The position numbers and the translations under genes are program-made. DNA of 64,000 bases from Hyphomicrobiales bacterium (GTDB lineage Bacteria > Pseudomonadota > Alphaproteobacteria > Rhizobiales > Rhizobiaceae): the NCBI GenBank assembly GCA_900465685.1, contig UEGR01000011.1, positions 1 to 64,000 of the forward strand. The letters run 5' to 3'. Position 1 is the first letter of the stretch. The number at the start of each line of letters is the position of its first letter. Below, piece after piece: positions 1-23,649 of the stretch. The notes under the pieces were generated by a model. The model was given only the letters and a program-made list of their open reading frames with translations, was not told the origin of the DNA and ran no database searches.

Positions 1-43
1 GTGGGTCCTTTCTGATCTTCAAGCCGGTTATTAAAGACCTTGC

Positions 44-1045
44 TTAAAGTTCAACCGCAGCCAGTTCCTGCAAACTATAGCTTGGCTCAACAGCAACCGT
101 ATTGCGCAGAGGCTGGCCAAACCCTTCAGCCACGATCTCGAAAACATCGCCTAGTTGGGTGTGAATTTTATCGGCAAATGAAAGCGTGGCTGTGCCGAAC
201 ATATGGACATGAACATCGCCCGGCTGACGGAAAATCCCGTATTTGAAATGGTGATATTCGAGATTGGCAATCGTGTGGGACATGTTCGCCTCACCAGACA
301 AAAACGACTTTTCCCATAGAACTCTGTCATCACGCAGAATGCGACTAGTCCCCCGAATATCCAGAGGCGCAGCACCAATCCGGATTTCGGGTCCCAAGGA
401 TGCTGGACGCAGCTTGGAATGGGCAAGCCAGAGATAGTTGCCCCGCTCCGTCACATGATCGGAGAACTCATTGGCCACGGCAAACCCCAAGCGCATCGGG
501 CGACCATCATCTGCGATAACGTAAATTCCCGCTATCTCCGGCTCTTCCCCAAAGTCCTGTGCGAATGCCGGCGAAACCAATGCAGCGCCCGGTGCAGCTA
601 GCGTGTGGCCGTTGCCTTTGTAAAACCATTCCGGCTGCACGCCTGGCTCACCTGCCAACGGTTTGCCGCCTTCAAGGCCCATACGGAACATCTTCATGGA
701 ATCCGTCAGTTCGGCTTCTTCCGTCATGACCTTGGCATGCATGCTGTCACGGGTCGCAGCCGACCCCAGATGGGTGAGCCCCGTACCGGTCAAATGTAAA
801 TGTGCAGGATCGAAATGAGTAATCGGCGGCAGGTAGAGGCCATCGGCGGCAAGCCTTTCCGGTTCAAACTGCGCTCCGAAGCCTTGTCCCTTGATCTGAT
901 TGACGAGGCTCCTGCCGCTTCTGGCCGCAGCAAGCGCCAGCTCGCGCACACCCGCCGCGCCGATGACTTCACGCGCTGGTTCGCCGTCCTCCCGTGCAAG
1001 AACGCCGATCGTTCCGTTCTCGTCCTGAATTTGAGATAACAACAT
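44..1045 (-). CDS. AraD1/GguC-family protein (FAH-like fold)
   Basis: 333 aa. Full-length similarity, by recognition, to the AraD1/GguC family, relatives of fumarylacetoacetate hydrolase that usually sit beside sugar or sugar-acid catabolic genes and act on 2-keto-3-deoxy acids or related enols. The middle (GxxPEWFYKGNG, then EEPEIAGIYVIADDG) and the C-terminal GDVHVHMFGTATLSF stretch are typical. An ATG at 1045 is preferred to the upstream TTG at 1051; the ribosome site is weak for both. It is the last gene of the region A array, 25 nt after the quinone-oxidoreductase-like gene, so it probably handles a late enolic or keto-acid intermediate. The exact reaction is not known. Confidence 0.85.
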   Translation of the reverse strand: MLLSQIQDENGTIGVLAREDGEPAREVIGAAGVRELALAAARSGRSLVNQIKGQGFGAQFEPERLAADGLYLPPITHFDPAHLHLTGTGLTHLGSAATRDSMHAKVMTEEAELTDSMKMFRMGLEGGKPLAGEPGVQPEWFYKGNGHTLAAPGAALVSPAFAQDFGEEPEIAGIYVIADDGRPMRLGFAVANEFSDHVTERGNYLWLAHSKLRPASLGPEIRIGAAPLDIRGTSRILRDDRVLWEKSFLSGEANMSHTIANLEYHHFKYGIFRQPGDVHVHMFGTATLSFADKIHTQLGDVFEIVAEGFGQPLRNTVAVEPSYSLQELAAVEL

Positions 1046-1070
1046 TTCCAAACTACCTTTTGCTGGAGCG

Positions 1071-2054
1071 TTACATGCTCAGGATCAGCTTGCCGAAATT
1101 GTCGGCAGCTTCCAGCATGCGATGTGCTTCCATTGCGTCATTGAAGGACAAAACCCCGTGGATGGTCGGCGCGATTACGCCCGATGCGAGAACCGGCAAC
1201 CAGCACTGCCGGAAACGCTCGACAACTTCGGCTTTCTCATCTGCCGAATGCGGTCGCAGGGTAAAACCACGTAGCTGCAGCATCTTGGTCAGAATAGCGG
1301 GCACATCAGCCTCGGCCTTTCCGTCGCTGAGCAGCCCCACGAATGTCATGCGGCCTCGCCAGCGTAAAAGTGCGATATGACGCGCCAGATATGCGGGGCC
1401 GACAAAGTCTTCGATCACATCGATGCCATCAGGGTAGATTTCGCGGGTTGCCTCTGCAAAATCGACCTCGCGATAATTCAGAACATTTGTTACGCCCCAA
1501 TCGCGCAGGCGGCGGGCCTTGTCCTCGCGCCCCACCGTTGTAATGATTTCAGCGTTTACATGTTGCGCCATGCGGATCGCAGTACTGCCAACGGCGCTAC
1601 CGCCCGCGTGAATCAGTACCCGCTCACCTGCCTTAAGGCGCGACAATTCGAATAAGGTCTCATGGGCCGTACAGAATGTTTCAATGACCGCAGCTGCCTG
1701 CACATCATCCCAGTCTGAAGGAACCACAACGACATGCCGCCAGTCGGCGACAGCATATTCTGCATAACCACCGCCGGAAAGAAGAGCTGCAACCCGCTTG
1801 CCGCGTAGATAATTTGGTACGTCGCCGCCCGTTTCGACAACCTCACCGCCGCATTCAACACCCAGCACGGGATTTGCGCCCGCAGGTAGTGGATAGACAC
1901 CTGCTCGCTGCATAGCATCAAGCCGATTGACCCCAACAGCGCCAACACGGATCAACACCTCATTCGCAGTCGGTGTCGGGCGCTCCACTTGCATAAAACG
2001 GAGCGCTTCCGGCCCACCCGGTTCCGGAGCATGACAGATTTTCATCATAGACAC
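1071..2054 (-). CDS. Zinc-free MDR dehydrogenase, quinone-oxidoreductase-like
   Basis: 327 aa medium-chain dehydrogenase/reductase of the QOR type. N-terminal GroES-like domain (GVECGGEVVETG near residues 65-76) and an NADPH-binding Rossmann segment around residues 145-160 (VLIHAGGSAVGSTAIRMA). The structural and catalytic zinc cysteines of alcohol dehydrogenases are absent, as in quinone and enoyl reductases. The GTG start at 2054 follows a good GGAGGAAA ribosome site; ATGs lie 6 and 9 nt downstream. Three nucleotides separate it from the upstream hydrolase gene, so it is cotranscribed. Likely reduces or oxidises an enone or ketone intermediate of the region A pathway. Confidence 0.88.
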   Translation of the reverse strand: MSMMKICHAPEPGGPEALRFMQVERPTPTANEVLIRVGAVGVNRLDAMQRAGVYPLPAGANPVLGVECGGEVVETGGDVPNYLRGKRVAALLSGGGYAEYAVADWRHVVVVPSDWDDVQAAAVIETFCTAHETLFELSRLKAGERVLIHAGGSAVGSTAIRMAQHVNAEIITTVGREDKARRLRDWGVTNVLNYREVDFAEATREIYPDGIDVIEDFVGPAYLARHIALLRWRGRMTFVGLLSDGKAEADVPAILTKMLQLRGFTLRPHSADEKAEVVERFRQCWLPVLASGVIAPTIHGVLSFNDAMEAHRMLEAADNFGKLILSM

Positions 2055-2057
2055 GGA

Positions 2058-2978
2058 TCAGTTTCCTCCAGTTTGCTCGGCAGGCTTGCGCATTTCGGCA
2101 TGGAACCATTGTTCCTGAATGAAGCGATACTCCCCTTCATATCCGCGCCTGACACGAGCAAAACCGGGAAAGTGGATATGCATTCCGCCAACAAGGAGGT
2201 CTTCATCGACACAGCGCTGCAGAATCCTGCGACGCGACAAAGCAGCAGCAGGCGTATCGGTGTCGAAAATCATCCCAACATCAGGATCGGCAAGCTGCAC
2301 CTCGGGCACATGAACAGTGTCGCCCCAAATGATCATTGCTTCACTGCGGGAGCGCAGAATGTAGCAGCTGTGTCCCGGCGTATGTCCAACGGATGGAACA
2401 GCAGCGATCCCAGGCAGAACTTCGCACTCAGCATTGAAAATGCGCACGTTATCAGCGAGATAAGGCGTTATCTGAATGCGTCCAGCATCAAAGTAAACGC
2501 GCTTCTGGCGCTCCGTAGCGCGAGCTTTTGCCTCGTCATCGAACCAATGCCGAATTTCCGCCTCATGAACATGAACAACCGCTTGCGGAAAAATTTTAGC
2601 GCCGGTTTCCGGATTGGTGAGACCATTGGAATGATCTGGATGGATATGGGTCAAAAGCACGTCAGTGACCGCTTCTGGCGCGATATCCAGCCGTGCGAGA
2701 AGTTCGGGCAATCGCCCGCAAGTTGGCCCCATGATGTCGCCCGAACCGCTGTCGATAAGGATAACCCGGCTGTCATACCGGACAAGAAACGCGTTGATCG
2801 AGACAACTGGAGGCGCGATCCGTGTCTCAGCTGTCAGAAACCGTTCCAGCCGCGCAGCATTGCCATCACGGAAAATATCGAAAGTGTCGTAGGCGACGTA
2901 GCCGTCGCAAAGCGTTGTGACCAACATATCGCCCAGCGGGCGATGATAAATAGCTGGTATCTGTTCGAAGCCGCTCAT
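2058..2978 (-). CDS. Metallo-beta-lactamase-fold hydrolase, copy 1
   Basis: 306 aa. Carries the dinuclear metal motif THIHPDHS (HxHxDH, from about residue 111), then GHTPGHS, a metal-ligand aspartate in WGDTVHVPE and a C-terminal MHIHFPGF. This is the layout of the lactonase / glyoxalase-II-like branch of the superfamily, with no signal peptide. Its start overlaps the last 4 nt of the upstream acyl-CoA synthetase gene, so the two are translationally coupled. A second, clearly related copy lies at 10301-11188 in the same array. Lactone or thioester hydrolysis is plausible from the family; the substrate is not determinable. Confidence 0.9.
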   Translation of the reverse strand: MSGFEQIPAIYHRPLGDMLVTTLCDGYVAYDTFDIFRDGNAARLERFLTAETRIAPPVVSINAFLVRYDSRVILIDSGSGDIMGPTCGRLPELLARLDIAPEAVTDVLLTHIHPDHSNGLTNPETGAKIFPQAVVHVHEAEIRHWFDDEAKARATERQKRVYFDAGRIQITPYLADNVRIFNAECEVLPGIAAVPSVGHTPGHSCYILRSRSEAMIIWGDTVHVPEVQLADPDVGMIFDTDTPAAALSRRRILQRCVDEDLLVGGMHIHFPGFARVRRGYEGEYRFIQEQWFHAEMRKPAEQTGGN

Positions 2979-4510
2979 ATCTGCCTGCCTTTCCCGACGA
3001 GTGCCGGTTGCGGCGTTTCAATGAGGTCGTAAAGCTCCGCAAGCCGACGGCGCAGTTCGGCGCGTGACAGTTTGCCGATTGCATTGCGCGGCAACTCATC
3101 AATGGCGACAAAAAGCCTTGGCCGCTTGTACGAGGTCATGCTGGCCAGTGCAGGGGCCAGACGCTCCTGCCAATCCGATGGTGGACATTCGGCAACCAAA
3201 GTGACTATTTCACCCCAATATTCCGACGGAAAGCCGAGCGCGATTATTTCGGTTTCGGGAAGTGCGGCGGCCAGCGCTCGCTCGACCTCATCTGGGGCTA
3301 CTTTGTAGCCGCCGGTTTTCATCATGTCGGACTGGCGTGCCACGAGAAAAAGACAGCCCGTCCGGTCAATCCTTCCTAGATCACCGGTATCGTGAAACTC
3401 TCCGGGCGCAAGCATCTTCAGGCCGCTAACCGTGATGTAGCCCCGAAACATATGCGGGCTATGCAGGAAAATATGCCCCGGCTCGCCGTCTCGAAGTACG
3501 CGACTTTCATCGTCGCGAATTTCAATCCGCACGCCCGTTGCCGCCCAGCCGACGCTCAGCCCCTCATCGGTGCTGACGTTTCCGGCATAGGCTTCGGCGG
3601 TCTCGGGAGGTGAGAGCACGGTGATGGGATTGAACATCTCGCTTTTCCCGTAGGTGACGCGGATGATCTCACCAAATTGCGCAACAGCCTTGTGATACAG
3701 CATCGGGGACAGAGGAGCCGTTCCTGTCAGGATCGTATGCAATTGCGGCTTGGCACTGTCGGTTTGTTCCAACGCCTCGGTCAACTTGGCGAGCACTGTC
3801 GGCGGCGCAAACATTTCAGTGATCGAACCTGACGCCAGAAGCGGCAGAACGGCGGCTGTATTCACACCATGCATCAGATGCACGCTCGCGCCTTCGGCAA
3901 GATAAGCGAAGGTCAGCAGTGAACTCCCATGCGAAAAGGGCGTCATCAAGAGAATGCGGTTTTGCCCGCCCGGACGAGTGGGAAGAACCGAACGCAAGAG
4001 AAGCCCCGCCGTCCAGCGTCCGAGATGGGTGTGGATAGCACCCTTAGCGGGCCCCGTGGTGCCACTTGTGAAAACGATACGGCTCGGCGTTTCCGGCTCC
4101 ACATCCGGCCACCCTTCCGCCGTCAGCGGGCGCGGTGCGCATTTGCGCACATCCTCCACCGCAACGCACGGCGTCAGCGTCGGCGTTGTCGCTTGGTCGA
4201 GAAGCACAATCCGAGTACCCGTGCAGGAGACCGCGTGATCGAACTCTTTCTGGCTGAGTACGGGATTAATCGGGACCTCTGTCGCTCCAGTCAGCGCAAC
4301 GGCATAGCTTGCCGCCGCTGCCAGCATCGAATTTTGAAAAACCGTTGCGATAAAATCGCCGGGACCAAAGCCAAGCGCACTCAGACAATCGGCAATGCCC
4401 GCCGCACGGTCAACAATCTCAGCGATTGTATGGCTACCCTCAGCATCAATGATGCCGACACGCTGACCATAGCGTCCGCGCATGGTCGCAAGTTCATTTC
4501 CCCAATGCAT
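2975..4510 (-). CDS. AMP-dependent acyl-CoA synthetase/ligase
   Basis: 511 aa ANL-superfamily enzyme. The P-loop-like core motif TSGTTGPAKG lies near residues 148-157; motif A5 reads YGKSE, followed by DTGDLGRID and the hinge region ending KTGGYKV. The C-terminal catalytic lysine is in PRNAIGKLSR. It should convert a free carboxylic acid plus ATP and CoA to the acyl-CoA in the cytoplasm. The array also has a CaiB/BaiF CoA-transferase, so there are two separate ways to make CoA thioesters, perhaps at two stages of the pathway or for two acids. Substrate unknown. Confidence 0.92.
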   Translation of the reverse strand: MHWGNELATMRGRYGQRVGIIDAEGSHTIAEIVDRAAGIADCLSALGFGPGDFIATVFQNSMLAAAASYAVALTGATEVPINPVLSQKEFDHAVSCTGTRIVLLDQATTPTLTPCVAVEDVRKCAPRPLTAEGWPDVEPETPSRIVFTSGTTGPAKGAIHTHLGRWTAGLLLRSVLPTRPGGQNRILLMTPFSHGSSLLTFAYLAEGASVHLMHGVNTAAVLPLLASGSITEMFAPPTVLAKLTEALEQTDSAKPQLHTILTGTAPLSPMLYHKAVAQFGEIIRVTYGKSEMFNPITVLSPPETAEAYAGNVSTDEGLSVGWAATGVRIEIRDDESRVLRDGEPGHIFLHSPHMFRGYITVSGLKMLAPGEFHDTGDLGRIDRTGCLFLVARQSDMMKTGGYKVAPDEVERALAAALPETEIIALGFPSEYWGEIVTLVAECPPSDWQERLAPALASMTSYKRPRLFVAIDELPRNAIGKLSRAELRRRLAELYDLIETPQPALVGKGRQI

Positions 4511-4525
4511 TTGGTCCTCCCGTGC

Positions 4526-5707
4526 TCACAGTACTTCCTCGGGAAAATGTTCAGGCCCAAGCGGGTCCTCATTGTTCGCCGCCAAGGCCCGGGACCATTT
4601 TTCCAACCACCAACCATAGGGTTCAGGCCAACTGGAAAAATCGCGTTCTACTCCCATCTCCCAGGCCACATGGCGCACCCAAAAAGGGTTGAACAGCATC
4701 TGGCGGCCGATACAGATCAAATCGGCCTTGCCCTCGCAGAGAATGGTTTCAGCATATTGGCCCGTGCGGATCATACCGACAGCGGCGGTTGGCATTCCTG
4801 CTTCGCGACGCAGTCTTTCAGACAGTGCCACCTGATAGCCCGGTCCCCGCGACAGGTTCGAGTTGGTCGCGCCAGCACGCATATTGCCGCCAGAGGAACA
4901 GTCGATGAGATCGACACCCGCAGCCTTCAGCGCTCGGGACAGCACGACGCTTTCGTCTTCGGTCCAGCCGCCGTCGATCCAGTCCGTCACCGAAAGCCTC
5001 GCAAAAAGCGGCATCGAATCCGGCATAATTGAGCGAAGCCGGTCAACCACCATCAGGGGCAGGCGCATTCGGTTTTCAAGATTACCGCCAAAACGGTCGG
5101 TGCGCTGATTGGCCAATGGCGAAAGAAAGCTCTGGAGCAGATAGCCATGCGCCAAATGTAGTTCGAGCAAATCAAACCCTGCGAGAATAGCCCGACGAGC
5201 ACCCGCTGCGTAGGCATCAACGATACCATCAATCTGCTGTTCACTCATTTCGACCGGCGTTAGCCAGCTTTCCGATAACGGAATGGGTGAAGCTCCCATC
5301 GGATAAAGCTGAATATCGCCCGCAGCCAGATTGCGCTCAGAAATCGGACCGTTACCTTCGTGCGCGCGCTGTTGCCCGCCCTTGCGCCCGCCATGACTGA
5401 TCTGGATTGCAGTCTTCGCGCCATAGCGTTTCATCTCGGAGACCAATCGCGCCATTGGCTCGATATGGCTGTCGGACCAAAGACCGGGATCGCCGTTGCT
5501 CACACGACCGGCGCGGGTCACGAAAGTCTGCTCCATGATGACAAGACCCGCGCCTCCCATGGCCATGCGTTCATAATGCGCGAACTGAAAGGGCGTCAGG
5601 CACCCGTCTTCAGCCGAATAAGTACCCATGGGCGAAACGACAATGCGATTTTTCAGAGTCACGCCGCGCACATGGTAGGGATGGAATAGAAGTGGTCCTT
5701 TTGTCAT
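4526..5707 (-). CDS. Old Yellow Enzyme-family NADH:flavin oxidoreductase, copy 1
   Basis: 393 aa single-domain FMN ene-reductase of the YqjM-like class. Substrate-anchoring histidines occur as HLAHGYL (about 184 and 187), followed by the FLSPLANQRTD and GGNLENR segments of the family. The active-site loop reads SPMGTYSAE: the tyrosine is kept, but the cysteine that tunes the flavin in YqjM (SPMCMYS) is a glycine at about residue 28. Ends 15 nt before the acyl-CoA synthetase start. A close paralogue is at 7933-9135. Expected to reduce an activated C=C bond (enone, enoate or butenolide). Confidence 0.92.
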   Translation of the reverse strand: MTKGPLLFHPYHVRGVTLKNRIVVSPMGTYSAEDGCLTPFQFAHYERMAMGGAGLVIMEQTFVTRAGRVSNGDPGLWSDSHIEPMARLVSEMKRYGAKTAIQISHGGRKGGQQRAHEGNGPISERNLAAGDIQLYPMGASPIPLSESWLTPVEMSEQQIDGIVDAYAAGARRAILAGFDLLELHLAHGYLLQSFLSPLANQRTDRFGGNLENRMRLPLMVVDRLRSIMPDSMPLFARLSVTDWIDGGWTEDESVVLSRALKAAGVDLIDCSSGGNMRAGATNSNLSRGPGYQVALSERLRREAGMPTAAVGMIRTGQYAETILCEGKADLICIGRQMLFNPFWVRHVAWEMGVERDFSSWPEPYGWWLEKWSRALAANNEDPLGPEHFPEEVL

Positions 5708-5721
5708 CTGGTATTCCGATC

Positions 5722-7104: not shown

Positions 7105-7153
7105 AGTGTCCTTCTCCCAAAAGACGAATTTTTTATTGCGGTGGCCCTACCGC

Positions 7154-7906
7154 CTATCCGCGGCTGTAAAGCCAGGCACGGCTGGTTCCCATACCTGCCT
7201 TGCGCAGGCGCACGAGGCTCAAGGCATGGCTCCAGGCCGCAGCGAAAACATCCAGCACTGTCGCTTTGTCGATCTGTTTGAGGCCTTCGCGTGCCAGAAT
7301 TTCCGCCATCACGCCCTCGGCTGGAACAATAACTTCCGCCCCCCGCGCAATTAGCTCCCGCGCAGTTGCCGTAAACGTTTCAATTAATTGAGCGGGCTCG
7401 TCGCGCGCTGCAATAAGCTCATATTCGTCCATGCCGGGCGATAGCGCCGTGACCTCCAGGACCCGTGTTTCCAAATGATGCTTGGCCACCGAGAGCTTGG
7501 TCATGTAGGCAACATTCGGAGCGTTCGAAATCAGACCAATTTGTCCACCAAGCGAACAACCGGTCAGCAGAGCAGCTTCCGTCAGCGAAACAACCGGAAT
7601 ATCGACAGCCGTACGCATCTCTCGCAGATATGGCTCGCTAAATGACCCCATGATGAAGGCGTCATAGCCCTGCTTCTCTGCCTCGACAGCCTGCTCTACG
7701 ATAGGTGCAAGCACACGATGATAGAGATAGGCGTTGCCAAGAGCATCGCTTGGGCTCTGGTCGCCGTAAGTACCCTCCGGTAAGCCCTGAACACGCACTT
7801 CAGCCTCGCCATCCAGCAAATTGCGGGCATGGGCTTCTATACCGCGCTTGTAGGCGTCAATTCGGCTCAACTCATTGACCGATTGGTGCCAGAATTTCAT
7901 TGCCAT
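7154..7906 (-). CDS. Asp/Glu-racemase-superfamily protein lacking both catalytic cysteines
   Basis: 250 aa with the two-lobed fold of the Asp/Glu/hydantoin racemase superfamily. In racemases and maleate isomerase two cysteines act as acid and base. Here the first site reads MGSFSEPYL (about residues 87-94), where hydantoin racemases have a cysteine before F, and the second reads VPAEGVM (about 194-200), where they have LGCAGM. The only nearby cysteine, in LLTGCSLGG, is not at either site. A two-base racemase mechanism is therefore unlikely; a decarboxylase, isomerase or lyase role, or loss of function, is possible. It starts 26 nt after the upstream reductase gene and shares its transcript. 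Confidence 0.8.
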   Translation of the reverse strand: MAMKFWHQSVNELSRIDAYKRGIEAHARNLLDGEAEVRVQGLPEGTYGDQSPSDALGNAYLYHRVLAPIVEQAVEAEKQGYDAFIMGSFSEPYLREMRTAVDIPVVSLTEAALLTGCSLGGQIGLISNAPNVAYMTKLSVAKHHLETRVLEVTALSPGMDEYELIAARDEPAQLIETFTATARELIARGAEVIVPAEGVMAEILAREGLKQIDKATVLDVFAAAWSHALSLVRLRKAGMGTSRAWLYSRG

Positions 7907-7932
7907 GCTTTTTCCTCCCTAAGTTCTCCCGT

Positions 7933-9135: not shown

Positions 9136-9243
9136 TTTTGCTCCTCCACAAATTTCCCGGACCATGCCTGTCAAAAGGCATAGCTCTCCCGTTCCGCGAC
9201 CATGCGAGCGCGGATTGCATCATTCCCTGTTGGCGATTGCCGG

Positions 9244-10278: not shown

Positions 10279-10300
10279 GTTCAATCCGTAGCGAAGCCTT

Positions 10301-11188: not shown

Positions 11189-11242
11189 CACAAATCGTTC
11201 CAGATCAAATATGTATGCATTTCATATCGGGCCGTTGCTTCA

Positions 11243-12598: not shown

Positions 12599-12606
12599 GA
12601 TGGACC

Positions 12607-13785
12607 TCAATAGGACCGTGGGAGACCCAACATGTGCTGACCGACATAGGCCAGGATCATGTTGGTCGAGATCGGCGCAGTCTGATAAATGCGGCACTCA
12701 CGCCACTTCCGTTCAATGCCGTATTCCACTGCATAACCGAAGCCGCCAAACGTCTGCAGCGCAGTATCAGCTGCTTTCCAGGTCGCCTCCGAGGCAAGCA
12801 GTTTGGCAATATTGGCTTCGCCACCGCAGGGCTGGTGCGCGTCGAACAAGGCAGCAGCCTTACGGGCCATGAGATCGGCGGCTTCAAGTTCCGCATGGGC
12901 GCGAGCAATAGGGAATTGCACACCCTGATTGGCGCCAATTTCGCGATTGAAAACGCGACGTTCCTTGGCATATTCCACCGCGCGGCGGATCATATAGCGG
13001 CCATCTCCAACACATTCCGACGCAACGAGAATGCGTTCTGCATTCATACCATCCAGAATGTAGCGGAAACCTTTGCCTTCCTCACCGATTAGTGCTGACG
13101 CCGGTACGCGTAGATTTTCGATGAAAACTTCCGTCGTGTTGTGGTTGATCAATGCGTTGATCGGGCGAATATCAACACCGTTTCCGCGCGCTTCACGCAG
13201 ATCGATCAGGAAAACCGAAATGCCGTCCGTTTTCTTGGCAACCTGATCAAGCGGCGTGGTGCGGGCTAGAAGCAGAAGGAGATCAGAATAAAGCGCGCGC
13301 GACGTCCAGACTTTCTGGCCGTTGATCACATAGTGATCACCGTCACGCACGGCACGGGTTTTGAGCTGCGTCGTGTCCGAACCAGTCGTCGGCTCTGTCA
13401 CGCCAAAAGCCTGGAGGCGCAGCCGCCCAGCGGCAATCTCGGGCAAGTAAGTGCGCTTCTGCTCCTCAGAACCGTGGCGCAGCAATGTGCCCATGATATA
13501 CATTTGGGCATGTGCAGGGCTCGCCTGACAGCCACAGGCATTGATTTCTTCCAAAATCACAGCCGCAGCGCGCAGTGGCAATCCAGCTCCGCCAAATTCT
13601 TCCGGGATGAGCGCCGCCAGAAAGCCCCCATCCGTCAATTCCTGTACAAATTCAGACGGGTATCCAGATTTTTCATCCAGTTTTGCCCAGTAATCGAGCG
13701 GATAGTTTTCACAAATTCGACGGATCGATTCACGCAGTTCCGGAAAGTCTTCGCCCAGTTCCATGGTAGCGACAGTATTGGTCAT
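12607..13785 (-). CDS. Acyl-CoA dehydrogenase with an isovaleryl-CoA-dehydrogenase-type catalytic site
   Basis: 392 aa FAD acyl-CoA dehydrogenase with the usual three-domain layout; FAD/substrate motif FGVTEPTTGSDTTQ near residues 127-140. The catalytic glutamate of short/medium-chain enzymes (IYEGT) is replaced by glutamine in RIYQTAPIS (about residue 368). A glutamate is instead present in MNAERILVASE (about residue 250), matching the position of the base in isovaleryl-CoA dehydrogenase (DLERLVLA). This points to a branched or otherwise unusual acyl-CoA. Ends 8 nt before MmgE/PrpD copy 2 and follows the lyase gene by 9 nt. Electrons would pass to ETF, which is not encoded here. Confidence 0.92.
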   Translation of the reverse strand: MTNTVATMELGEDFPELRESIRRICENYPLDYWAKLDEKSGYPSEFVQELTDGGFLAALIPEEFGGAGLPLRAAAVILEEINACGCQASPAHAQMYIMGTLLRHGSEEQKRTYLPEIAAGRLRLQAFGVTEPTTGSDTTQLKTRAVRDGDHYVINGQKVWTSRALYSDLLLLLARTTPLDQVAKKTDGISVFLIDLREARGNGVDIRPINALINHNTTEVFIENLRVPASALIGEEGKGFRYILDGMNAERILVASECVGDGRYMIRRAVEYAKERRVFNREIGANQGVQFPIARAHAELEAADLMARKAAALFDAHQPCGGEANIAKLLASEATWKAADTALQTFGGFGYAVEYGIERKWRECRIYQTAPISTNMILAYVGQHMLGLPRSY

Positions 13786-13794
13786 AGCGTAGTC

Positions 13795-14721: not shown

Positions 14722-14724
14722 GAC

Positions 14725-15519
14725 CTAAACTCCCCTGAAGACAGGTGGGCGCTTTTCATTGAAAGCCCGCACGCCTTCGTGACGGTCCTCCGTCGACACC
14801 ATGCGGTTGTAGCATTCGATCTCGAAAGCCAGACCGTCAGCCAGTGACATTTGCAAACCGCGATGAATAGACTGCTTGGCCTGGCGCACAGAAATAGGCG
14901 CGTTGCCCGCTATACGACGCGCAGTGGCAAGTGCTGCACCAAGAAGCTCGGCCTGCGGGAACACACGATTGATAAGCCCCCACTCAAATGCCTCTTGCGC
15001 CGCAAAAGGCAGGCCAGTGAGGATAACTTCCTTGGCGCGTCGTTCTCCCATGGCGCGCGGCAGGTTCTGCGTACCACCCGCACCTGGCATGATGCCGAGC
15101 GTTACCTCGGTCAATGCGAAACGTGCATTTTCAGACGCATAGGCAAAATCAAGAGCTGCCGTAATCTCGCAGCCCCCACCATAGGCCGCACCATTGATTG
15201 CACCGATCAGCGGCACCGGACAGGCAATTATTGCGCGGAGCATGCGCTCAAACATTGCATGCTGGCGCAACCATTGCGCATCGGTCATGCCATTGCGTTC
15301 CTTCAGGTCACCGCCTGCGCAGAAGGCCTTTTCGCCGGAACCCGTCAGCACAATCGCGCGCACGCCTTCGGAAACGACCTGGAACCTCTCGAAAAGGTCC
15401 ATCAGTTCCTCGCCCATCCGGGTGTTCATCGCATTGGCTGCTTGCGGCCTATTAAGCCGGACTAACAGCACATGGTCATCGATGCGCTCCAGTTCGAGCG
15501 TTTCATAAGTGCGTTCCAT
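14725..15519 (-). CDS. Enoyl-CoA hydratase/isomerase (crotonase family)
   Basis: 264 aa crotonase. Oxyanion-hole segments EKAFCAGGDLKE and GAAYGGGCE are present, and both hydratase glutamates appear conserved: one in ALTEVTLGIMPGAGGT and one in AKEVILTG. That favours true hydration of a 2-enoyl-CoA rather than isomerase-only activity. It shares one nucleotide with the end of the upstream CoA-transferase gene and is 3 nt from the lyase gene, so it sits in the core of the acyl-CoA part of the array. Confidence 0.92.
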   Translation of the reverse strand: MERTYETLELERIDDHVLLVRLNRPQAANAMNTRMGEELMDLFERFQVVSEGVRAIVLTGSGEKAFCAGGDLKERNGMTDAQWLRQHAMFERMLRAIIACPVPLIGAINGAAYGGGCEITAALDFAYASENARFALTEVTLGIMPGAGGTQNLPRAMGERRAKEVILTGLPFAAQEAFEWGLINRVFPQAELLGAALATARRIAGNAPISVRQAKQSIHRGLQMSLADGLAFEIECYNRMVSTEDRHEGVRAFNEKRPPVFRGV

Positions 15520-16652
15520 CAGCTTTCCTGTCGAATTGTCTGGTTGTGCGCTCCAAGTGTGGGCGCTGAACCGCCCGACGTTGGGCGAGCGTCATCAATG
15601 GTGAATGGGAGGCCGATCCACTTCTGCCCGTCAGCTTCCGTCACAATACCAACAGCCTCGGTCTGCGGATGGGTCCAGACCTTGTCGATGGTCAAAAGCG
15701 GGCAATTCGGCACACTGACAGCGTCGAGTTTTTCGCCGAGTTCGCTGACCGTGAGTTTAGCGACCGCGGCCGCGATCTGTGGTATCAACTCGTCGCGCAG
15801 CAACACTCTGTCGCGGTTCTGCGCAAACCTCTGATCTTTAGCCAGATGCTCCAGCCCCGGTAACGCCTGGCAGAGTTTTGCAAACAACCGGTCATTGCCC
15901 GCTGCGATCATCACCCAGCCGTCATCAGCCTCGAAGGCCTGATAGGGCACAATTTCAGCCAGGCCGGAACCATGAGGCTTGCGCACTTCGCCTGCAACCG
16001 CATGCGCGGCAAGCGGGATGGTCATCCAGGCAAGCCCAGTCTCAAACAAAGACGTTGCGATATGCGCGCCTTCGCCATTTTTATTGCGCTCAAGAAGGGC
16101 TGCCAACAGGCCGATGACGGTCCACATCCCCGACCCCATATCCACCAGCGACACACCGACGCGGACGGGAGGACGATCCGCTTCGCCGGTGATGGACATG
16201 ATGCCAGAGGAAGCCTGCGCCAGCGGATCATAACCAAGCTTGCGCGACAGCGGGCCAGTTTTGCCAAAAGCGCCGATATCACACCAGATCATACCAGGCG
16301 CCTGCCGCCGCATCTCGTCGACATCAACACCGAATTTGGTGAGCAGACCAGGTCTCAGGTTCTGGATAACAGCATCAGCCCCAAGGATCAGCTTCTTGAG
16401 ATGCGCACATTGTTCTGGGTCTGAAAAATCGAGTGTGAGACTTTCCTTTCCCCGGTTTAGAGCGTGAAATGCGGTGGCGTCTTCTTTGAAGAAGGGGGGC
16501 CCCCAACCGCGCGCATAATCCCCAGTGGAAGGGTTTTCAATCTTGATTACCCGTGCTCCCAACTCTGCCAGAATAAGGCCTGCATAGGGAGCGGCCACGC
16601 TGTGCCCCAGCTCGAGAACGGTAAGACCGTGAAGTGGTGCGGATTTACCCAA
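15519..16652 (-). CDS. CaiB/BaiF-family (class III) CoA-transferase
   Basis: 377 aa class III CoA-transferase. N-terminal GLTVLELGHSVAAPYAGLIL and GWGPPFF are family hallmarks; the catalytic aspartate that forms the acyl anhydride is in WCDIGAFGKTGP (about residue 129). It moves CoA between carboxylic acids without ATP. The start is TTG at 16652, with AGGAGAAT at good spacing and no ATG near the N-terminus. It is the first enzyme gene after the transporter, so it probably activates the imported acid. Confidence 0.92.
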   Translation of the reverse strand: MGKSAPLHGLTVLELGHSVAAPYAGLILAELGARVIKIENPSTGDYARGWGPPFFKEDATAFHALNRGKESLTLDFSDPEQCAHLKKLILGADAVIQNLRPGLLTKFGVDVDEMRRQAPGMIWCDIGAFGKTGPLSRKLGYDPLAQASSGIMSITGEADRPPVRVGVSLVDMGSGMWTVIGLLAALLERNKNGEGAHIATSLFETGLAWMTIPLAAHAVAGEVRKPHGSGLAEIVPYQAFEADDGWVMIAAGNDRLFAKLCQALPGLEHLAKDQRFAQNRDRVLLRDELIPQIAAAVAKLTVSELGEKLDAVSVPNCPLLTIDKVWTHPQTEAVGIVTEADGQKWIGLPFTIDDARPTSGGSAPTLGAHNQTIRQES

Positions 16653-16688
16653 AATAATTCTCCTGTCGAATTTCGGAGACCAAACGGA

Positions 16689-17381
16689 TCAGAGATATTC
16701 CTCCGCCAGTGCGGCGCCTCTGATTTCATTGGTCGTTCCCGAACGGCGGATGAGACCGCCGCGCATGATGTGTCCGCTATGCGCAATTTTGAGTGCTGGC
16801 CGCGCCATCTGCTCGGTCATGAGCACTGCGATACCGTCCTCTTGCATCTGACGTACGGCGGTCGAAATCTGTTGGATCCAGACCGGGGCGAGACCCAGAA
16901 ACGGCTCATCCAAAAGCAATAGTTTCGGGCCACCGCACATCGCTCTGGCAATCGCCACCAATTGCTGTTGGCCACCCGAAAGTTGACCTGCTGGCTGGGC
17001 CTGACGTTCAGCCAGAAAAGGGAAACTTGCCACAAGACGATCCCAGGCCTTCGACTGATCACGTGTGCCGAGCGAACCGGCACCTGCCAGCACGTTGTCC
17101 TTGACACTCATGGTTGGAAAAACGCGTCGTCCTTCGGGTGAGTAGCCAATACCTAGCCGGGCGCGCGCATCACTCGAAAGACCGGAAATATCACGGCCAT
17201 CGAAACTGATCTGGCCACGAGCCGCTCTGACGAGCCCGATAACAGCATTGATCAGACTCGACTTCCCTGCGCCATTGGCCCCGATGAGAAGTACTGTCTG
17301 GCCGGCTTCGACTGCGATATCGACACCAGACAATGCGTGCGTGCCGCTATAGGTCACATGCAAATCACGAATGCTGAGCAT
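16689..17381 (-). CDS. Branched-chain-type ABC transporter ATPase (LivF-like)
   Basis: 230 aa ATPase. Walker A GANGAGKSS, signature LSGGQQQLVAIARAM, Walker B LLLLDEPFLGLAP. Starts at 17381 (MLSIRDLHV) behind a strong GAGGAGGAA site located inside the end of the preceding ATPase gene, giving a 17-nt overlap; the longer in-frame start has no such site. With the adjoining LivG-like ATPase it forms the heterodimeric motor for the two permeases and the periplasmic binding protein encoded upstream. Confidence 0.95.
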   Translation of the reverse strand: MLSIRDLHVTYSGTHALSGVDIAVEAGQTVLLIGANGAGKSSLINAVIGLVRAARGQISFDGRDISGLSSDARARLGIGYSPEGRRVFPTMSVKDNVLAGAGSLGTRDQSKAWDRLVASFPFLAERQAQPAGQLSGGQQQLVAIARAMCGGPKLLLLDEPFLGLAPVWIQQISTAVRQMQEDGIAVLMTEQMARPALKIAHSGHIMRGGLIRRSGTTNEIRGAALAEEYL

Positions 17382-18123
17382 CGTCTTCCTCCTCATCGCT
17401 GCCCCCAAGATAGGCATTGATTACATCCGGATTTGTCAGCACCGTTTCCGGCGGGCCTTCTGCAATGAGCTTGCCGCCATCGAGAACAATGACCGACGGA
17501 CACAGACGCTTGATCAATTCCATATCGTGCTCAACCAGAAGCACACCGCAGCCGAAGGCTTCTTGAGCGAAACGCACATATGTATCGATGTTGGTGCGCT
17601 CGGATTTTTCCAACCCTGCCGCCGGTTCATCGAGCAGAAGCACCTTTGGCTGTGTTGCAAGTGCCATGGTGAGACCCAGCATCTTCTGAAGTCCGTAGGG
17701 AAGAATTTCCGCACTGCGCGTCCAGTTTTCGACGAGACCAAACTGGTCAAGCAGCGGAGACAGCTGTTCGAGTGCCGACCGCCCTCTCTTTGAAAAGCGG
17801 AGCGCCGAAAGAAGATTGTCCTCGACGGTGTAGCCATTGAAGGTTGCGGTCTGCTGGAAGCTGCGCACCAGACCTCGACCAGCATTCTCATAGACAGGCT
17901 TGCCGTCGATCTGCGTGTCGCCAAGAAGAACACGGCCCGAGCTTGGCTTCAGTCGACCCGAGATGATGTTGATCATCGTGGTCTTGCCGGCACCGTTTGG
18001 TCCAATGACACCGAGAAGTCCGCCGGCTGGCAAGGTGAAACTGACATCGGTGAAGACCTTCAGTCCGCCGAATGCCTTGGAGATACGATCCGCTTTCAGG
18101 GCATTTGTTGAAGTCCGGTTCAT
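17365..18123 (-). CDS. Branched-chain-type ABC transporter ATPase (LivG-like)
   Basis: 252 aa ATPase with Walker A GPNGAGKTT, Walker B KVLLLDEPAAGLE and the switch histidine in LLVEHDMELI. The signature region reads LPYGLQKMLGLTMAL, a variant of LSxGxQ common in LivG proteins. The C-terminus matches the LivG type (GPPETVLTNPDVINAYLGG). Its start overlaps the LivM-like permease stop by 4 nt. Cytoplasmic face of an importer for a small hydrophobic acid or amide. Confidence 0.95.
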   Translation of the reverse strand: MNRTSTNALKADRISKAFGGLKVFTDVSFTLPAGGLLGVIGPNGAGKTTMINIISGRLKPSSGRVLLGDTQIDGKPVYENAGRGLVRSFQQTATFNGYTVEDNLLSALRFSKRGRSALEQLSPLLDQFGLVENWTRSAEILPYGLQKMLGLTMALATQPKVLLLDEPAAGLEKSERTNIDTYVRFAQEAFGCGVLLVEHDMELIKRLCPSVIVLDGGKLIAEGPPETVLTNPDVINAYLGGSDEEEDDAQHS

Positions 18124-19184
18124 CGACCATTCTCCCCAATAGCAAGATTGCCTTCATGCACCGCCGCTTTGGTCCGATCTTTCCCAACCGAGCCACTATC
18201 TGTGCCGCGCAGACGCTTGATGAGCGTGATTGCGATACCGACCAGACCGCCGCGCGCCACAAGCGTCACAACAATGATCAGCACACCGAAGAGGCCAGGT
18301 GACAATTCACCGGAAAGTGCGAAGTAATTGGTCGCCGAGACCAGAACAATTGCACCCACAAGCGAGCCCAGAATGGTCCGCTTTCCACCAACGATCGCGT
18401 AGGTGATGTAGGTGATTGATGACATCGGAGCGAAGGACGTGGGATGGGCGGTCAAAAGCATGTTGACGAGCGCAAAGCCTGCGAAGCCCGACACGCCAGC
18501 TGCGACGCAGAACGCCATCGCCTTATATTTCCAGACCGGGAGGCCGAGGCTTTCCGCCAGCACATCGTTGGTCTCAATGGCCGCAAATTCGTAGCGATAC
18601 CAACGTGTGAAGGCGGCAGTGATCAGGAAACCGGCGAAGGCGAGTGCGCAGGTGGTGAGCACAACGTGGGAATTGTCCCACAGGTCCATACCGAACAACG
18701 TCACTGGCGGCATGCCGACAAGTCCGTTTGCTCCACCCGTCAACGGCTCAGCTTCAAACAGCAGGAGTTGGACGATTTCGGTCAGCACAAAAGTGACCAG
18801 CACGAAATACACCCCCTTCAATCGCAATATCAACGAGCCGAGCGGAATTGCACAGAGCACCGGCACGAGAAAGGCCGCTGCCGAGAGGACAAAAATGTCG
18901 GTAATGCCAAGCCTCAGGCTCAATATGGCAACGGTATAGCCACCGACAGCCATGAAAGCAGGAACGGCGAAGCTCATCAGATCGAGCCGTTGCATAATAT
19001 AGACGCCGAGTGCCGCCGTTGCCGCGATCAGGATCAAATTGGTCTGAGACAAGACCTGCGGATTGGTGCTGACAAGTGGCACAATGAAGGACAGAAGCAC
19101 CAGGCCGAGTGTGATCCAATCAGGAATACTGAAGAATGGCTGACGTCGAATGGTGATGTCTGAGGAAATGGTGGTGCGGCTCAT
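18120..19184 (-). CDS. Branched-chain-type ABC transporter permease (LivM-like)
   Basis: 354 aa inner-membrane permease with about ten hydrophobic segments and the LivM-family stretch IETNDVLAESLGLPVWKYKAMAF split by a short loop, the coupling region for the ATPases. The last 30 or so residues are charged and unlike the membrane part. Overlaps neighbours on both sides by 4 nt (ATGA type), so translation is coupled through livH-M-G. Confidence 0.94.
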   Translation of the reverse strand: MSRTTISSDITIRRQPFFSIPDWITLGLVLLSFIVPLVSTNPQVLSQTNLILIAATAALGVYIMQRLDLMSFAVPAFMAVGGYTVAILSLRLGITDIFVLSAAAFLVPVLCAIPLGSLILRLKGVYFVLVTFVLTEIVQLLLFEAEPLTGGANGLVGMPPVTLFGMDLWDNSHVVLTTCALAFAGFLITAAFTRWYRYEFAAIETNDVLAESLGLPVWKYKAMAFCVAAGVSGFAGFALVNMLLTAHPTSFAPMSSITYITYAIVGGKRTILGSLVGAIVLVSATNYFALSGELSPGLFGVLIIVVTLVARGGLVGIAITLIKRLRGTDSGSVGKDRTKAAVHEGNLAIGENGR

Positions 19185-20047
19185 GAACGGCGGACCTCCT
19201 TGCCGAAAAGTCCCTGTGGGCGAACCACAAGCGTCACCATGACGATTGCGAAAAGCGTGAGCGCACCTTTGGATCCGCCGAGATAGACGGCAGCATAAGC
19301 TTCAACCATACCGACAATGAAGGCAGCGACGGTGGCACCGGTGACACTCCCAAGGCCACCCAGAATGACGGTAATGAACGAATAAGCGAGCGTCGCATCT
19401 CCAACATGCGGAGCGAGTGACAGGATTGGCGTGACCAGCGCACCCGTCACCCCGGCAAGCCCGGTGGCGAGAGCAAATGCAAAAGGAAAGAGCGCCTTGG
19501 TCCGCATGCCGAGCGCGCTTGCTACCGCGCGGTCTTCGGCCATTGCTCGCATGCCACGCCCGACATTGGTGCGATAGATCAGCCAATAGACCAATGCGAT
19601 AGCCACCAGACATGCGGCGAGCACAATCATATTGGCATAGGGAAAATAGATGCCACCAAAACGCCAGACCCCGGTTACAGGGAAAGAGAATTGCGGCGAT
19701 TCAGCCCCGAAAATTACCAGGATCGCTGTGGCCAGGACCAGATAGAAGCCCATCGTGACCATCAATGTCGCCTGATGATCTTCAATCACTCTTTCAAGAA
19801 TGATTGCCTCGAACAACCAACCGAGCACTGCCGTCGCCACAAGGGCTATCAACACCGCCACAGGATAAGGCAATCCGAGCATTGTAGTGCAGTAATAGGC
19901 GACGTAGCCGCCCATTACATAGAAGCCGCCGTGAGCGAAATTCACCACGCCGAGGATCCCGAAAATCAGTGTGAACCCAAGCGCAAGCAAAGTATATTGT
20001 GAGCCGAGACTGATACCAATCAGCCCCGTCGTGATGAAGCTTTCCAT
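19181..20047 (-). CDS. Branched-chain-type ABC transporter permease (LivH-like)
   Basis: 288 aa permease beginning MESFITTGLIGISLGS at ATG 20047; an upstream in-frame extension to 20179 lies inside the binding-protein gene and is not membrane-like. It has the LivH family features FGILGVVNFAHGGFY and GRGMRAMAEDRAVASALG (coupling loop). Starts 11 nt after the binding-protein stop. Forms the membrane channel with the LivM-like partner. Confidence 0.94.
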   Translation of the reverse strand: MESFITTGLIGISLGSQYTLLALGFTLIFGILGVVNFAHGGFYVMGGYVAYYCTTMLGLPYPVAVLIALVATAVLGWLFEAIILERVIEDHQATLMVTMGFYLVLATAILVIFGAESPQFSFPVTGVWRFGGIYFPYANMIVLAACLVAIALVYWLIYRTNVGRGMRAMAEDRAVASALGMRTKALFPFAFALATGLAGVTGALVTPILSLAPHVGDATLAYSFITVILGGLGSVTGATVAAFIVGMVEAYAAVYLGGSKGALTLFAIVMVTLVVRPQGLFGKEVRRS

Positions 20048-20058
20048 GATACGGTGCC

Positions 20059-21234
20059 TTACTTTTCGCTGACTGCTTCCGCGCGCAGCAGAGGCTGCTT
20101 CTTGCCATCCTGAACGACGCCGATAGCGAACGGATAAGACATTTCCTGATTGATGCCGAAGAAGGACTGGCCGATCCAATGACCCTTGCCAATGTTCTCG
20201 TCTTCCACGGAAAGCTTACGCATTTCGGCAGCGATCTTCTCGGAATCGTCGACAGTGCCGGCAGCTTGCGCAGCTTTAATCATCATCCGAGCGGCAAAGA
20301 CCCATCGGAAGAAGTCGCTATTTTCCGGGCGTGGTGAACCCATCAGCTTCTTGTACTTGTCTTCCAAAGCTTGCGTGTTTTCGTCCATATAGATCGGCTC
20401 GTACCAGAGGAAATCCTTCAGCACGTCGACGCCACCGGCCACACGGGCAATTTCATCAAAACCAGGACCACCCAGACGGAAAATGGGTCCCTCGAAGCCA
20501 GCCTGACGCAATTGTTTTACGATGATGCCAGCATCGCCCGCTGGCGATGAAGCGAGATCCAGAGCCCCAGGGTTTGCGCTCATTATGCGCGTGACGATCG
20601 GCGCAAAATTGCTGGTTCCGCGCTGGTAGTATTCTTCGGAGACATTAACACCCTTCTCCTTGAATATCTGTGCATTCACGCCAGCAACATCGGTACCACC
20701 CTGATCGTTCGGAGCCACAATCGCTACGCTGTCGAACTTGAAACGCTCGCGACCAGCATCAATAATCGGACCGGCCCAACCAGACGGTCCGGGACCGATA
20801 TGGAATATGCTCGGCCATTGAGGACCAATTGCGTTCTTGGCGAAACTATCAACCATAGCAACCATGCGATTGCGTGCTGCAACAGGCTTCATACCGGTCA
20901 CTTCGGGCGAGCCGACACTCCCGACAATGACCTTGATACCCTGAGCGGCAAGCTGGTTCATCGCCGAAGCTGCACCTTCAGCGGTATATTTGGAGTCAAT
21001 CACAACAGTGGAAACCGAACATGGAGTTCCATCAATAACCAGACGCTTTTCGTCGGTTGTTTCCTTGGCGACAAAATTGACGGCGTCGCGCAAAGCAATG
21101 CCCCATTGGGCTGCCGGACCCGACAACACAGCCGGGGTACCGATCTTGAGATCACAGGCAGCAGACGCCACGCTCGTATACGCTGCAGACGCAAGTAGAA
21201 CGCCGCCCAAGAGGCGACCAAGACGCATTGACAT
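20059..21234 (-). CDS. Branched-chain-type ABC transporter substrate-binding protein (LivK-like)
   Basis: 391 aa periplasmic protein: signal peptide (charged MSMRLGR, hydrophobic core, cleavage near VASA-AC), then a type I periplasmic-binding fold starting DLKIGTPAVLSGPAAQWG. ATG 21234 lies 7 nt after GGAGGAG; an ATG 15 nt upstream overlaps that ribosome site. First gene of the array, with a promoter and LacI-type operator about 85-130 nt upstream. Such proteins bind amino acids, amides or aromatic and other small acids; the ligand is unknown. Unlike the other binding-protein genes in the window it has no stem-loop after its stop. Confidence 0.93.
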   Translation of the reverse strand: MSMRLGRLLGGVLLASAAYTSVASAACDLKIGTPAVLSGPAAQWGIALRDAVNFVAKETTDEKRLVIDGTPCSVSTVVIDSKYTAEGAASAMNQLAAQGIKVIVGSVGSPEVTGMKPVAARNRMVAMVDSFAKNAIGPQWPSIFHIGPGPSGWAGPIIDAGRERFKFDSVAIVAPNDQGGTDVAGVNAQIFKEKGVNVSEEYYQRGTSNFAPIVTRIMSANPGALDLASSPAGDAGIIVKQLRQAGFEGPIFRLGGPGFDEIARVAGGVDVLKDFLWYEPIYMDENTQALEDKYKKLMGSPRPENSDFFRWVFAARMMIKAAQAAGTVDDSEKIAAEMRKLSVEDENIGKGHWIGQSFFGINQEMSYPFAIGVVQDGKKQPLLRAEAVSEK

Positions 21235-21318
21235 ATTTTCTCCTCCCATTGTGTAGCCGCATCGTCGCTTCGCTTGTTACCAACGCGAAGTCTCCTCCTG
21301 ACTGCCAGCTACCTCGTG

Positions 21319-21347
21319 ACCATAGCTGCGAGGGAAACACCTGTCAA
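21319..21347 (-). promoter_or_regulatory. Predicted sigma-70 promoter of the region A array
   Basis: On the minus strand: -35 TTGACA (21347-21342), 17-nt spacer, -10 TATGGT (21324-21319). It faces the binding-protein gene, whose start lies about 85 nt downstream. No other good promoter was noticed further down the array, although short internal ones cannot be excluded. Confidence 0.65.
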
Positions 21348-21361
21348 TAAAACGTTTCATT
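21346..21361. promoter_or_regulatory. LacI-type operator
   Basis: AATAAAACGTTTCATT, a 16-bp inverted repeat with a single mismatched pair and the central CG typical of LacI/GalR-family operators. It overlaps the upstream two bases of the -35 box, where a bound repressor would block RNA polymerase. The only LacI-family gene in the window is at 9244-10278 inside the array. A weaker TAACGTTA core lies about 50 bp upstream at 21402-21409. Confidence 0.7.
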
Positions 21362-21762
21362 AAAAAATTTCTCAATTTCTTCTGATTATCAAATTGGAAT
21401 TTAACGTTATTTATCAATATTTTATCTGAAATCCAAGTCTAGAAGCCTTGGCGTTTCACTGCAAGCCCCAGGAAAAAATCAGCGGATGGCCATAGAAATA
21501 TGAATCGTTTTTTTATTCACTCAATACGCGGTGATGCGCCTTGAGTACCCCCACCCGAGCCGGATCGCACAAGCGGATCGGAACACTTTCCGAGAGATAA
21601 ACAGGCCAGCAATAAGAATGGATATATGAAGCGAGCATTGCAGCGCTGCGGCGCCAGGCAAAATTAGTATCGAAATCACATGGCAAAATCGCACGCTCTT
21701 GACCGGCGTTTTACACGCTTTAAGAACGCATTTATTTTAAATTATCTTGGTATCGCGGCAAT
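21362..21762. other. Intergenic stretch without a recognised gene
   Basis: About 400 nt between the array promoter and the hairpin behind the Ugp-like permease. The part next to the operator (to about 21430) is strongly AT-rich, as expected upstream of a promoter; the rest is of mixed composition. I see no convincing ORF, tRNA or repeat family in it. Confidence 0.5.
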
Positions 21763-23638: not shown

Positions 23639-23649
23639 ATGCCAACCTA

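What the first reader, a model, noticed from the sequence alone, without database searches (positions are those of the whole stretch)
44..21361. Twenty-gene LacI-controlled catabolic array with no known substrate
All 20 genes from the LivK-like gene to the AraD1-like gene are colinear with small gaps or overlaps, and one promoter with a LacI-type operator lies ahead of the first. The mix (CoA-transferase plus acyl-CoA synthetase, acyl-CoA dehydrogenase, hydratase, HMG-CoA-lyase-like enzyme, ene-reductases, lactonase-like MBL hydrolases, MmgE/PrpD proteins, AraD1) does not match any pathway I know. Working idea: import of a small branched acid or unsaturated lactone, C=C reduction, ring opening, CoA activation and lyase cleavage.
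Basis: partly seen in the sequence, partly recalled or inferred. Interest (0 to 1): 0.8.

Follow-up and report, generated by a model that had tools for sequence, protein, structure and literature searches.

The report
Gene array for branched dicarboxylate breakdown
A conserved 20-gene bacterial array appears to reduce and open a lactone-type acid and feed it into a variant of the itaconate/methylsuccinate breakdown route in which the last two enzymes are replaced by unrelated ones, probably of the opposite handedness.

Summary
The array is real: 20 colinear minus-strand genes (21234 to 44), gaps of -53 to about 105 bp, led by one promoter whose -35 box overlaps a LacI-type operator; the operator core is identical in 12 of 12 upstream regions examined. 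Twenty genes are colinear in four other genomes, 19 (no AraD1) in two, and 17-18 are seen in Rhizobium, Paracoccus and Methylobacterium, where the fetched DNA ends. "No known pathway" is half right. The acyl-CoA dehydrogenase is about 60% identical to that of the P. aeruginosa/C. necator-type itaconate/methylsuccinate cluster and shares its unusual catalytic layout; CoA-transferase and MmgE/PrpD genes accompany both. What differs is the final pair: crotonase hydratase plus HMG-CoA-lyase-type lyase here, hot-dog hydratase plus CitE lyase there. In 105 related loci the two pairs never mix (32 against 8; 65 others have no complete pair in range). I read the block as a branched C5-type dicarboxylate route of opposite stereochemistry, fed by ene-reductases and dihydrocoumarin-hydrolase-like lactonases. 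The imported compound, C5 against C6 (HMG), and the roles of PrpD2, the racemase-like protein, ACS and QOR are not settled.

The parts
21499..21514 (.). second, weaker operator-like site about 150 bp upstream of the first
   Evidence: 3 mismatches; a second site of 11 of 14 or more in 6 of 12 upstream regions
21346..21361 (.). LacI-type operator AATGAAACGTTTTATT
   Evidence: core TGAAACGTTTTATTGAC in 12 of 12 upstream regions; only exact match to the generalised pattern in the genome
21319..21347 (-). sigma-70-like promoter TTGACA-17-TATGGT overlapping the operator
   Evidence: 10 of 12 matches
20059..21234 (-). LivK-like solute-binding protein
   Evidence: Peripla_BP_6
19181..20050 (-). LivH-like permease
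   Evidence: BPD_transp_2
18120..19184 (-). LivM-like permease
   Evidence: BPD_transp_2
17365..18123 (-). LivG-like ATPase
16689..17417 (-). LivF-like ATPase
15519..16652 (-). class III (CaiB) CoA-transferase, Asp171
   Evidence: PF02515; nearest NCBIfam models are dicarboxylate CoA-transferases, below cut-off
14725..15519 (-). crotonase-fold enoyl-CoA hydratase, Glu118 and Glu138 present (roles recalled)
   Evidence: PF00378
13795..14721 (-). HMG-CoA-lyase-type lyase, R13 D14 H208 H210 C241 present
   Evidence: NF004283 289.4 bits against cut-off 246; predicted fold pLDDT 89.3, best solved match 6nds
12607..13785 (-). acyl-CoA dehydrogenase of the methylsuccinyl-C4-CoA dehydrogenase type; usual catalytic Glu aligns with Pro371, Glu250 conserved
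11243..12598 (-). MmgE/PrpD protein 1; catalytic His and both Lys kept, second base Tyr replaced by Asp146
10301..11191 (-). MBL lactonase 1 (dihydrocoumarin hydrolase / MPH relatives), HxHxDH complete
9244..10278 (-). LacI-family regulator, inside the array
   Evidence: PF00356
7933..9135 (-). ene-reductase 1 (YqjM/XenA-class OYE)
7154..7906 (-). Asp/Glu/hydantoin-racemase-fold protein with a single Cys (117)
   Evidence: PF01177
5722..7104 (-). MmgE/PrpD protein 2, lacks the conserved His152 and Lys202
4526..5707 (-). ene-reductase 2 (OYE family)
2975..4510 (-). AMP-forming acyl-CoA synthetase
   Evidence: PF00501
2058..2978 (-). MBL lactonase-like 2
1071..2054 (-). quinone-oxidoreductase-like (PIG3) reductase
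   Evidence: TIGR02824 340 bits against 296.8
44..1045 (-). AraD1/GguC protein; variable tail, missing in two of six other genomes whose block end was seen
   Evidence: NF040903 507.9 bits against 340

Best explanation
A LacI-repressed catabolic operon for a branched short-chain dicarboxylate that reaches the cell as an (unsaturated) lactone-type acid. Inferred: the Liv transporter imports it, OYE1/2 reduce the conjugated C=C, MBL1/2 open the lactone to a 2-substituted succinate, and PrpD1 (perhaps with PrpD2 and the racemase-like protein) interconverts stereoisomers, as methylsuccinate isomerase does. Best supported, by homology only: the CoA-transferase makes the C4-CoA ester and the dehydrogenase forms a mesaconyl-C4-CoA-type product. 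Inferred from fold: crotonase hydratase and HMGL-type lyase then form and cleave a tertiary beta-hydroxyacyl-CoA of the opposite hand to the (S)-citramalyl-CoA of the Pseudomonas route, giving acetyl-CoA and a 2-oxoacid (pyruvate if the substituent is methyl).
For: The dehydrogenase is 60% and 59% identical to those of two clusters ordered LysR-Ich-ACAD-PrpD-CaiB-CitE (L162, L163), the arrangement whose enzymes are assayed in PMC12290011. Between the two dehydrogenase clades only 3 of 392 columns are conserved differently at 80% or more on each side. The usual catalytic Glu aligns with Pro371 and Glu250 stands in helix G, also in the reference rows. Of 105 dehydrogenase loci, 33 have HMGL within 7.5 kb (32 with crotonase, 0 with hot-dog hydratase) and 8 have CitE (8 hot-dog, 0 crotonase of 45% or more); Fisher p 1.3e-8, not corrected for kinship. 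L121 carries CoAT-ACAD-CitE-hot-dog contiguously with a dehydrogenase 72% identical to the window's. PMC6689899 (passages): a CitE-type lyase cleaves (S)-citramalyl-CoA and (R)-HMG-CoA, while the Pseudomonas HMGL PA2011 is (S)-HMG-CoA-specific; hence the opposite-hand inference. Best solved match 6nds, an HMG-CoA lyase with CoA and 3-methylmalate, a C5 hydroxydiacid (Z tied with human HMGCL). MBL1 lies within 7.5 kb of the core in 14 of 33 HMGL loci, 8 of them block carriers, the window included. Operator footprint 12 of 12.
Against: No activity, ligand or growth data. PrpD1 is only 27-29% identical to the four presumed isomerases and has Asp for the second-base Tyr. The CoA-transferase is only about 36% identical to the CaiB of the reference clusters. 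In one pocket segment the reference dehydrogenases L161-L163 read HGQMYNMF against HAQMYIMG here, though CitE-linked L137 reads as the window does. HMGL and crotonase are the leucine-pathway pair, so a C6 (HMG) route fits as well. The lyase swap does not fix carbon number, since a CitE enzyme also cleaves (R)-HMG-CoA. Mammals are reported to pair crotonase AUH with CitE-type CLYBL, so the fold-handedness pairing is not strict. 64 of 105 loci have neither lyase in range. The association may rest on as few as two changes on the dehydrogenase tree, and in L102 CitE and the hot-dog gene lie on the other strand several kb away. The genome already has a CitE-type cluster (L145). Nothing identifies the imported compound.
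Confidence: 0.5

Rival explanations
1. C6 route: a 3-methylglutarate-type diacid. The CoA-transferase makes 3-methylglutaryl-CoA, the dehydrogenase 3-methylglutaconyl-CoA, the crotonase (S)-HMG-CoA, and the lyase acetoacetate plus acetyl-CoA, with a methyl-substituted lactone as precursor.
For: HMGL passes the NF004283 cut-off; crotonase plus HMGL is the leucine pair; the CoA-transferase's solved relatives include succinate-hydroxymethylglutarate CoA-transferase 9br6; the Glu250 position is that of isovaleryl-CoA dehydrogenase (recalled, not compared here).
Against: The dehydrogenase shares motifs with presumed methylsuccinyl-CoA dehydrogenases; characterised MmgE/PrpD enzymes share a four-carbon 1,4-diacid substrate core (PMC12290011, section 14); L121 pairs the same dehydrogenase type with Ich/Ccl-like proteins; the reference cluster's CaiB has the same top NCBIfam model and human SUGCT is also named for itaconyl-CoA (PMC12460153, passages), so the transferase does not favour C6; the genome has a canonical HMGL elsewhere.
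Confidence: 0.25
2. Same chemistry on a bulkier 2-alkyl- or 2-hydroxymethyl-succinate (for example from paraconic- or aconic-type lactones), releasing acetyl-CoA and a substituted 2-oxoacid that ACS, QOR, AraD1 and neighbours process.
For: Two lactonase-like proteins, two ene-reductases and an extra acyl-CoA synthetase; PMC12290011 notes room for larger C3 substituents in the isomerase; PA0880 of the Pseudomonas cluster is a 2-hydroxyparaconate lactonase (PMC9875883, passages); AraD1 is followed by an acetaldehyde dehydrogenase gene in three genomes and, in two of them, an aldolase gene.
Against: No gene fixes the side chain; AraD1 is absent from two of six other block genomes.
Confidence: 0.15
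3. Several short operons of unrelated pathways that merely lie side by side.
For: 105-bp gap before OYE1; partial versions in Bradyrhizobium and others lack sub-blocks.
Against: 19-20 genes colinear in six other genomes of two genera and 17-18 seen in loci of five named genera; conserved operator ahead of the first gene.
Confidence: 0.1

Closest known systems
P. aeruginosa PA0878-0883 / C. necator E6A55_22580-22600 itaconate-methylsuccinate cluster (Ich, Mcd, Msi, Ict, Ccl)
   Same: CaiB CoA-transferase, acyl-CoA dehydrogenase of the same type, MmgE/PrpD; in P. aeruginosa also a lactonase for an itaconate-derived lactone
   Different: crotonase instead of hot-dog Ich; HMGL instead of CitE Ccl; LacI instead of LysR; Liv ABC importer; unrelated MBL proteins, ene-reductases, second PrpD, ACS, QOR
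Leucine lower pathway (methylglutaconyl-CoA hydratase, HMG-CoA lyase)
   Same: folds of the last two enzymes
   Different: no carboxylase among the 20 genes; dehydrogenase and CoA-transferase belong with the diacid route
Dihydrocoumarin hydrolase / methyl parathion hydrolase type MBL enzymes
   Same: sequence relatives of MBL1 and complete metal ligands
   Different: clustered with aliphatic diacid genes; no aromatic-ring genes among the 20
Coumarin route (ene-reductase then lactonase; recalled, no call)
   Same: order of reduction then ring opening would be alike
   Different: no hydroxylase or ring-cleavage dioxygenase among the 20 genes

Membership tests
Itaconate/methylsuccinate (BSCD) cluster | class III CoA-transferase | tested here: met
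   PF02515, Asp171; about 36% to the reference CaiB
Itaconate/methylsuccinate (BSCD) cluster | dehydrogenase of the methylsuccinyl-C4-CoA type | tested here: met
   by sequence only: 60% identity, shared motifs; activity not testable here
Itaconate/methylsuccinate (BSCD) cluster | MmgE/PrpD methylsuccinate isomerase residues | tested here: inconclusive
   PrpD1 keeps three His and two Lys; Glu reads Asp, Tyr reads Asp; 27-29% identity
Itaconate/methylsuccinate (BSCD) cluster | Ich hot-dog hydratase | tested here: not met
   none of the 20 genes matches such a family; a crotonase is present
Itaconate/methylsuccinate (BSCD) cluster | CitE-type citramalyl-CoA lyase | tested here: not met
   HMGL-type instead
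HMG-CoA lyase (DRE-TIM) | family score and catalytic residues | tested here: met
   289.4 bits against 246; R13, D14, H208, H210, C241; fold
HMG-CoA lyase (DRE-TIM) | acts on (S)-HMG-CoA | not testable with these tools
   needs an enzyme assay
Class III OYE ene-reductase | His/His/Tyr active site | tested here: met
   HxAHGYL at 185 (OYE1) and 184 (OYE2); the flavin-side Cys position reads Gly (SPMGTYS) (residue roles recalled)
MBL lactonase | HxHxDH and the other metal ligands | tested here: met
   both proteins; lactonase activity not testable here
AidB AHL lactonase | NCBIfam cut-off 360 bits | tested here: not met
   198.6 (MBL2) and 210.2 (MBL1) bits
Asp/Glu/hydantoin racemase | two catalytic Cys | tested here: not met
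   only one Cys in the protein, Cys117 (two-Cys requirement recalled)

The most novel reading that the evidence does not exclude
An opposite-hand branched-C5 route: a crotonase and an HMGL-type lyase acting as (R)-citramalyl-CoA-forming hydratase and (R)-citramalyl-CoA lyase, replacing the Ich/Ccl pair as a unit in many Proteobacteria, here coupled to a reductive lactone-opening funnel.
Probability: 0.33. Interest if true: 0.75.

Novelty: new variant of a known kind. Interest (0 to 1): 0.55.

Why it matters
It would reveal a widespread second version of itaconate/methylsuccinate-type breakdown that annotation hides under 'HMG-CoA lyase' and 'enoyl-CoA hydratase', suggest a stereochemical rule for telling the two apart from sequence, and offer lactonase-like and ene-reductase genes tied to a small-acid pathway. 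It turns a list of orphan families into a short set of assays.

Tried and rejected
Aromatic or coumarin catabolism: no ring hydroxylase or dioxygenase family among the 20 genes. AHL quenching: AidB cut-off not met. Plasmid carriage: megablast of the block against PLSDB matched 51 records, none over 80% of it; the 20 rows listed cover 3% each, the AraD1 part. LivK ligand: solved relatives only at E 4.5e-8 or worse, no inference drawn. Two-Cys racemase activity of gene 14: only one Cys. Lyase swap as proof of C5: dropped after PMC6689899 showed that a CitE enzyme also cleaves (R)-HMG-CoA. Reading Gln368 as the replacement of the catalytic Glu: corrected to Pro371 by the alignment. The script also aligned two distant dehydrogenases to find the usual Glu; they were too distant to use. 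Literature: searches listed no paper that joins an HMGL-type lyase with itaconate/methylsuccinate clusters (two found none at all; the one hit of 86 concerns a CitE enzyme; PMC12290011 has no 'HMG-CoA lyase' in its main text; supplements not read). on lactone, ene-reductase and lactonase wording gave nothing used. This covers only the held open-access library.
Full report
Where and what. The window is the first 64 kb of contig C11 of a 5.14-Mb genome, related to Ochrobactrum: the locus of Ochrobactrum sp. Q0168 (L055) has a dehydrogenase 99% identical. Twenty minus-strand ORFs run from LivK (21234) to AraD1 (44) with gaps of -53 to 105 bp. In order: LivK, H, M, G, F; class III CoA-transferase; crotonase; HMGL-type lyase; acyl-CoA dehydrogenase; MmgE/PrpD 1; MBL 1; LacI; OYE 1; racemase-fold protein; MmgE/PrpD 2; OYE 2; acyl-CoA synthetase; MBL 2; QOR; AraD1.

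Conservation. A search of 150 genomes (own included) with MBL1 gave matches at E 1e-40 in 35; 7 of these, own included, are at 85% identity or more, and one (G102) at 52%. I fetched the surroundings for 12 of the 34 other matching genomes. In G017, G023, G025 and G030 all 20 genes are colinear; in G004 and G066 (another genus) 19, without AraD1; G102 has a dispersed, partial set; G008, G027, G043, G057 and G143 show no block around their MBL. Bradyrhizobium loci carry shorter versions.

Tail. In G017, G023 and G025 AraD1 is followed by an acetaldehyde dehydrogenase gene (cut by the contig end in G025), and in G017 and G023 by a 4-hydroxy-2-oxovalerate aldolase gene; only the G023 proteins were scanned against NCBIfam, the others are recognised by near-identical starts. 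The window's contig stops 43 bases past AraD1, and that dehydrogenase was not found in the assembly at E 1e-20.

Control. The operator AATGAAACGTTTTATT (21346-21361) overlaps the -35 box of the best promoter-like site. The core TGAAACGTTTTATTGAC is in 12 of 12 distinct upstream regions (window, six G genomes, L056, L057, L059, L060, L061; L055 and L058 left out as doubles of G025 and G004), and a second site of 11 of 14 or better in 6 of 12, 150-190 bp further up. The only exact match to the generalised pattern in the genome is this one. The LacI gene sits inside the array, so autoregulation is likely (inference).

The core is a diacid route. In L162 and L163 a dehydrogenase 60% and 59% identical to the window's lies in the order LysR, hot-dog Ich, ACAD, PrpD, CaiB, CitE. 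The dehydrogenase tree has 105 rows: 80 scan loci, 4 of the 15 listed plasmid hits, 20 of the 71 places that I chose, and the window. A 20-row clade has CitE near 6 and HMGL near none; an 85-row set has HMGL near 33 and CitE near 2; the window lies in a starred 8-row clade of block carriers. Three columns separate the two sets at 80% or more on each side. The usual catalytic Glu aligns with Pro371 and Glu250 stands in helix G, in the reference rows too. One pocket segment reads HAQMYIMG here and in CitE-linked L137, HAQMYTMG in L145, but HGQMYNMF in L161-L163, so the pocket is close but not identical.

The upper part. MBL1 matches organophosphate hydrolases and an ancestral dihydrocoumarin hydrolase best, and lies within 7.5 kb in 14 of 33 HMGL loci, 8 of them block carriers. 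Both MBLs keep the metal-ligand motifs, both OYEs the His/His/Tyr motif. PrpD1 keeps five of the seven isomerase residues named in PMC12290011, with Glu to Asp and Tyr to Asp; PrpD2 has lost His152 and Lys202. The racemase-fold protein has only Cys117. Relatives of the core have TRAP (G102, L086), MFS (L063) or TctC-like (L077, L097) genes nearby, types common for carboxylates (general knowledge). The own genome holds a second, CitE-type cluster (L145), so the block is not simply its methylsuccinate route; a different hand or a different substituent would explain keeping both.

Verdict. Real, conserved, with a conserved operator; core family identified; substrate not. C5 against C6 remains open at about 2 to 1 in my judgement.

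Noticed in passing
L145 (G000:C26:53000-72999): A second dehydrogenase (62%) in a CitE / Ich-like / CaiB cluster beside a split TPP enzyme, aldehyde dehydrogenase, FAD oxidase, SDR and PxpA: the genome's own Mcd-type locus.
   Followed up: partly
window 1-43 and L032/L044/L041: The contig ends 43 bases after AraD1; in relatives acetaldehyde dehydrogenase and 4-hydroxy-2-oxovalerate aldolase genes follow, and the former was not found in this assembly.
   Followed up: partly
L140 (G000:C33:378707-379576): Canonical HMG-CoA lyase elsewhere in the genome; the tool reports one in-frame TGA inside the match.
   Followed up: no
window 5722-7104: PrpD2 is present in every full block copy seen, yet lacks two residues thought essential in MmgE/PrpD enzymes, so it may do new chemistry.
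   Followed up: partly
L137 (Deinococcus sp. QL22 plasmid): Mcd-type dehydrogenase, CaiB, CitE and hot-dog hydratase with TPP enzyme, PxpA and PrpD: the diacid route outside Proteobacteria.
   Followed up: no
L038 (G102) 5420-12366: TRAP transporter and hydantoinase A/B genes beside a 51-79% identical version of the core: possibly lactam instead of lactone input.
   Followed up: no
window 21813-26175: Separate ABC transporter genes (two permeases, solute-binding protein, ATPase with TOBE) on the same strand upstream of the array's promoter.
   Followed up: no
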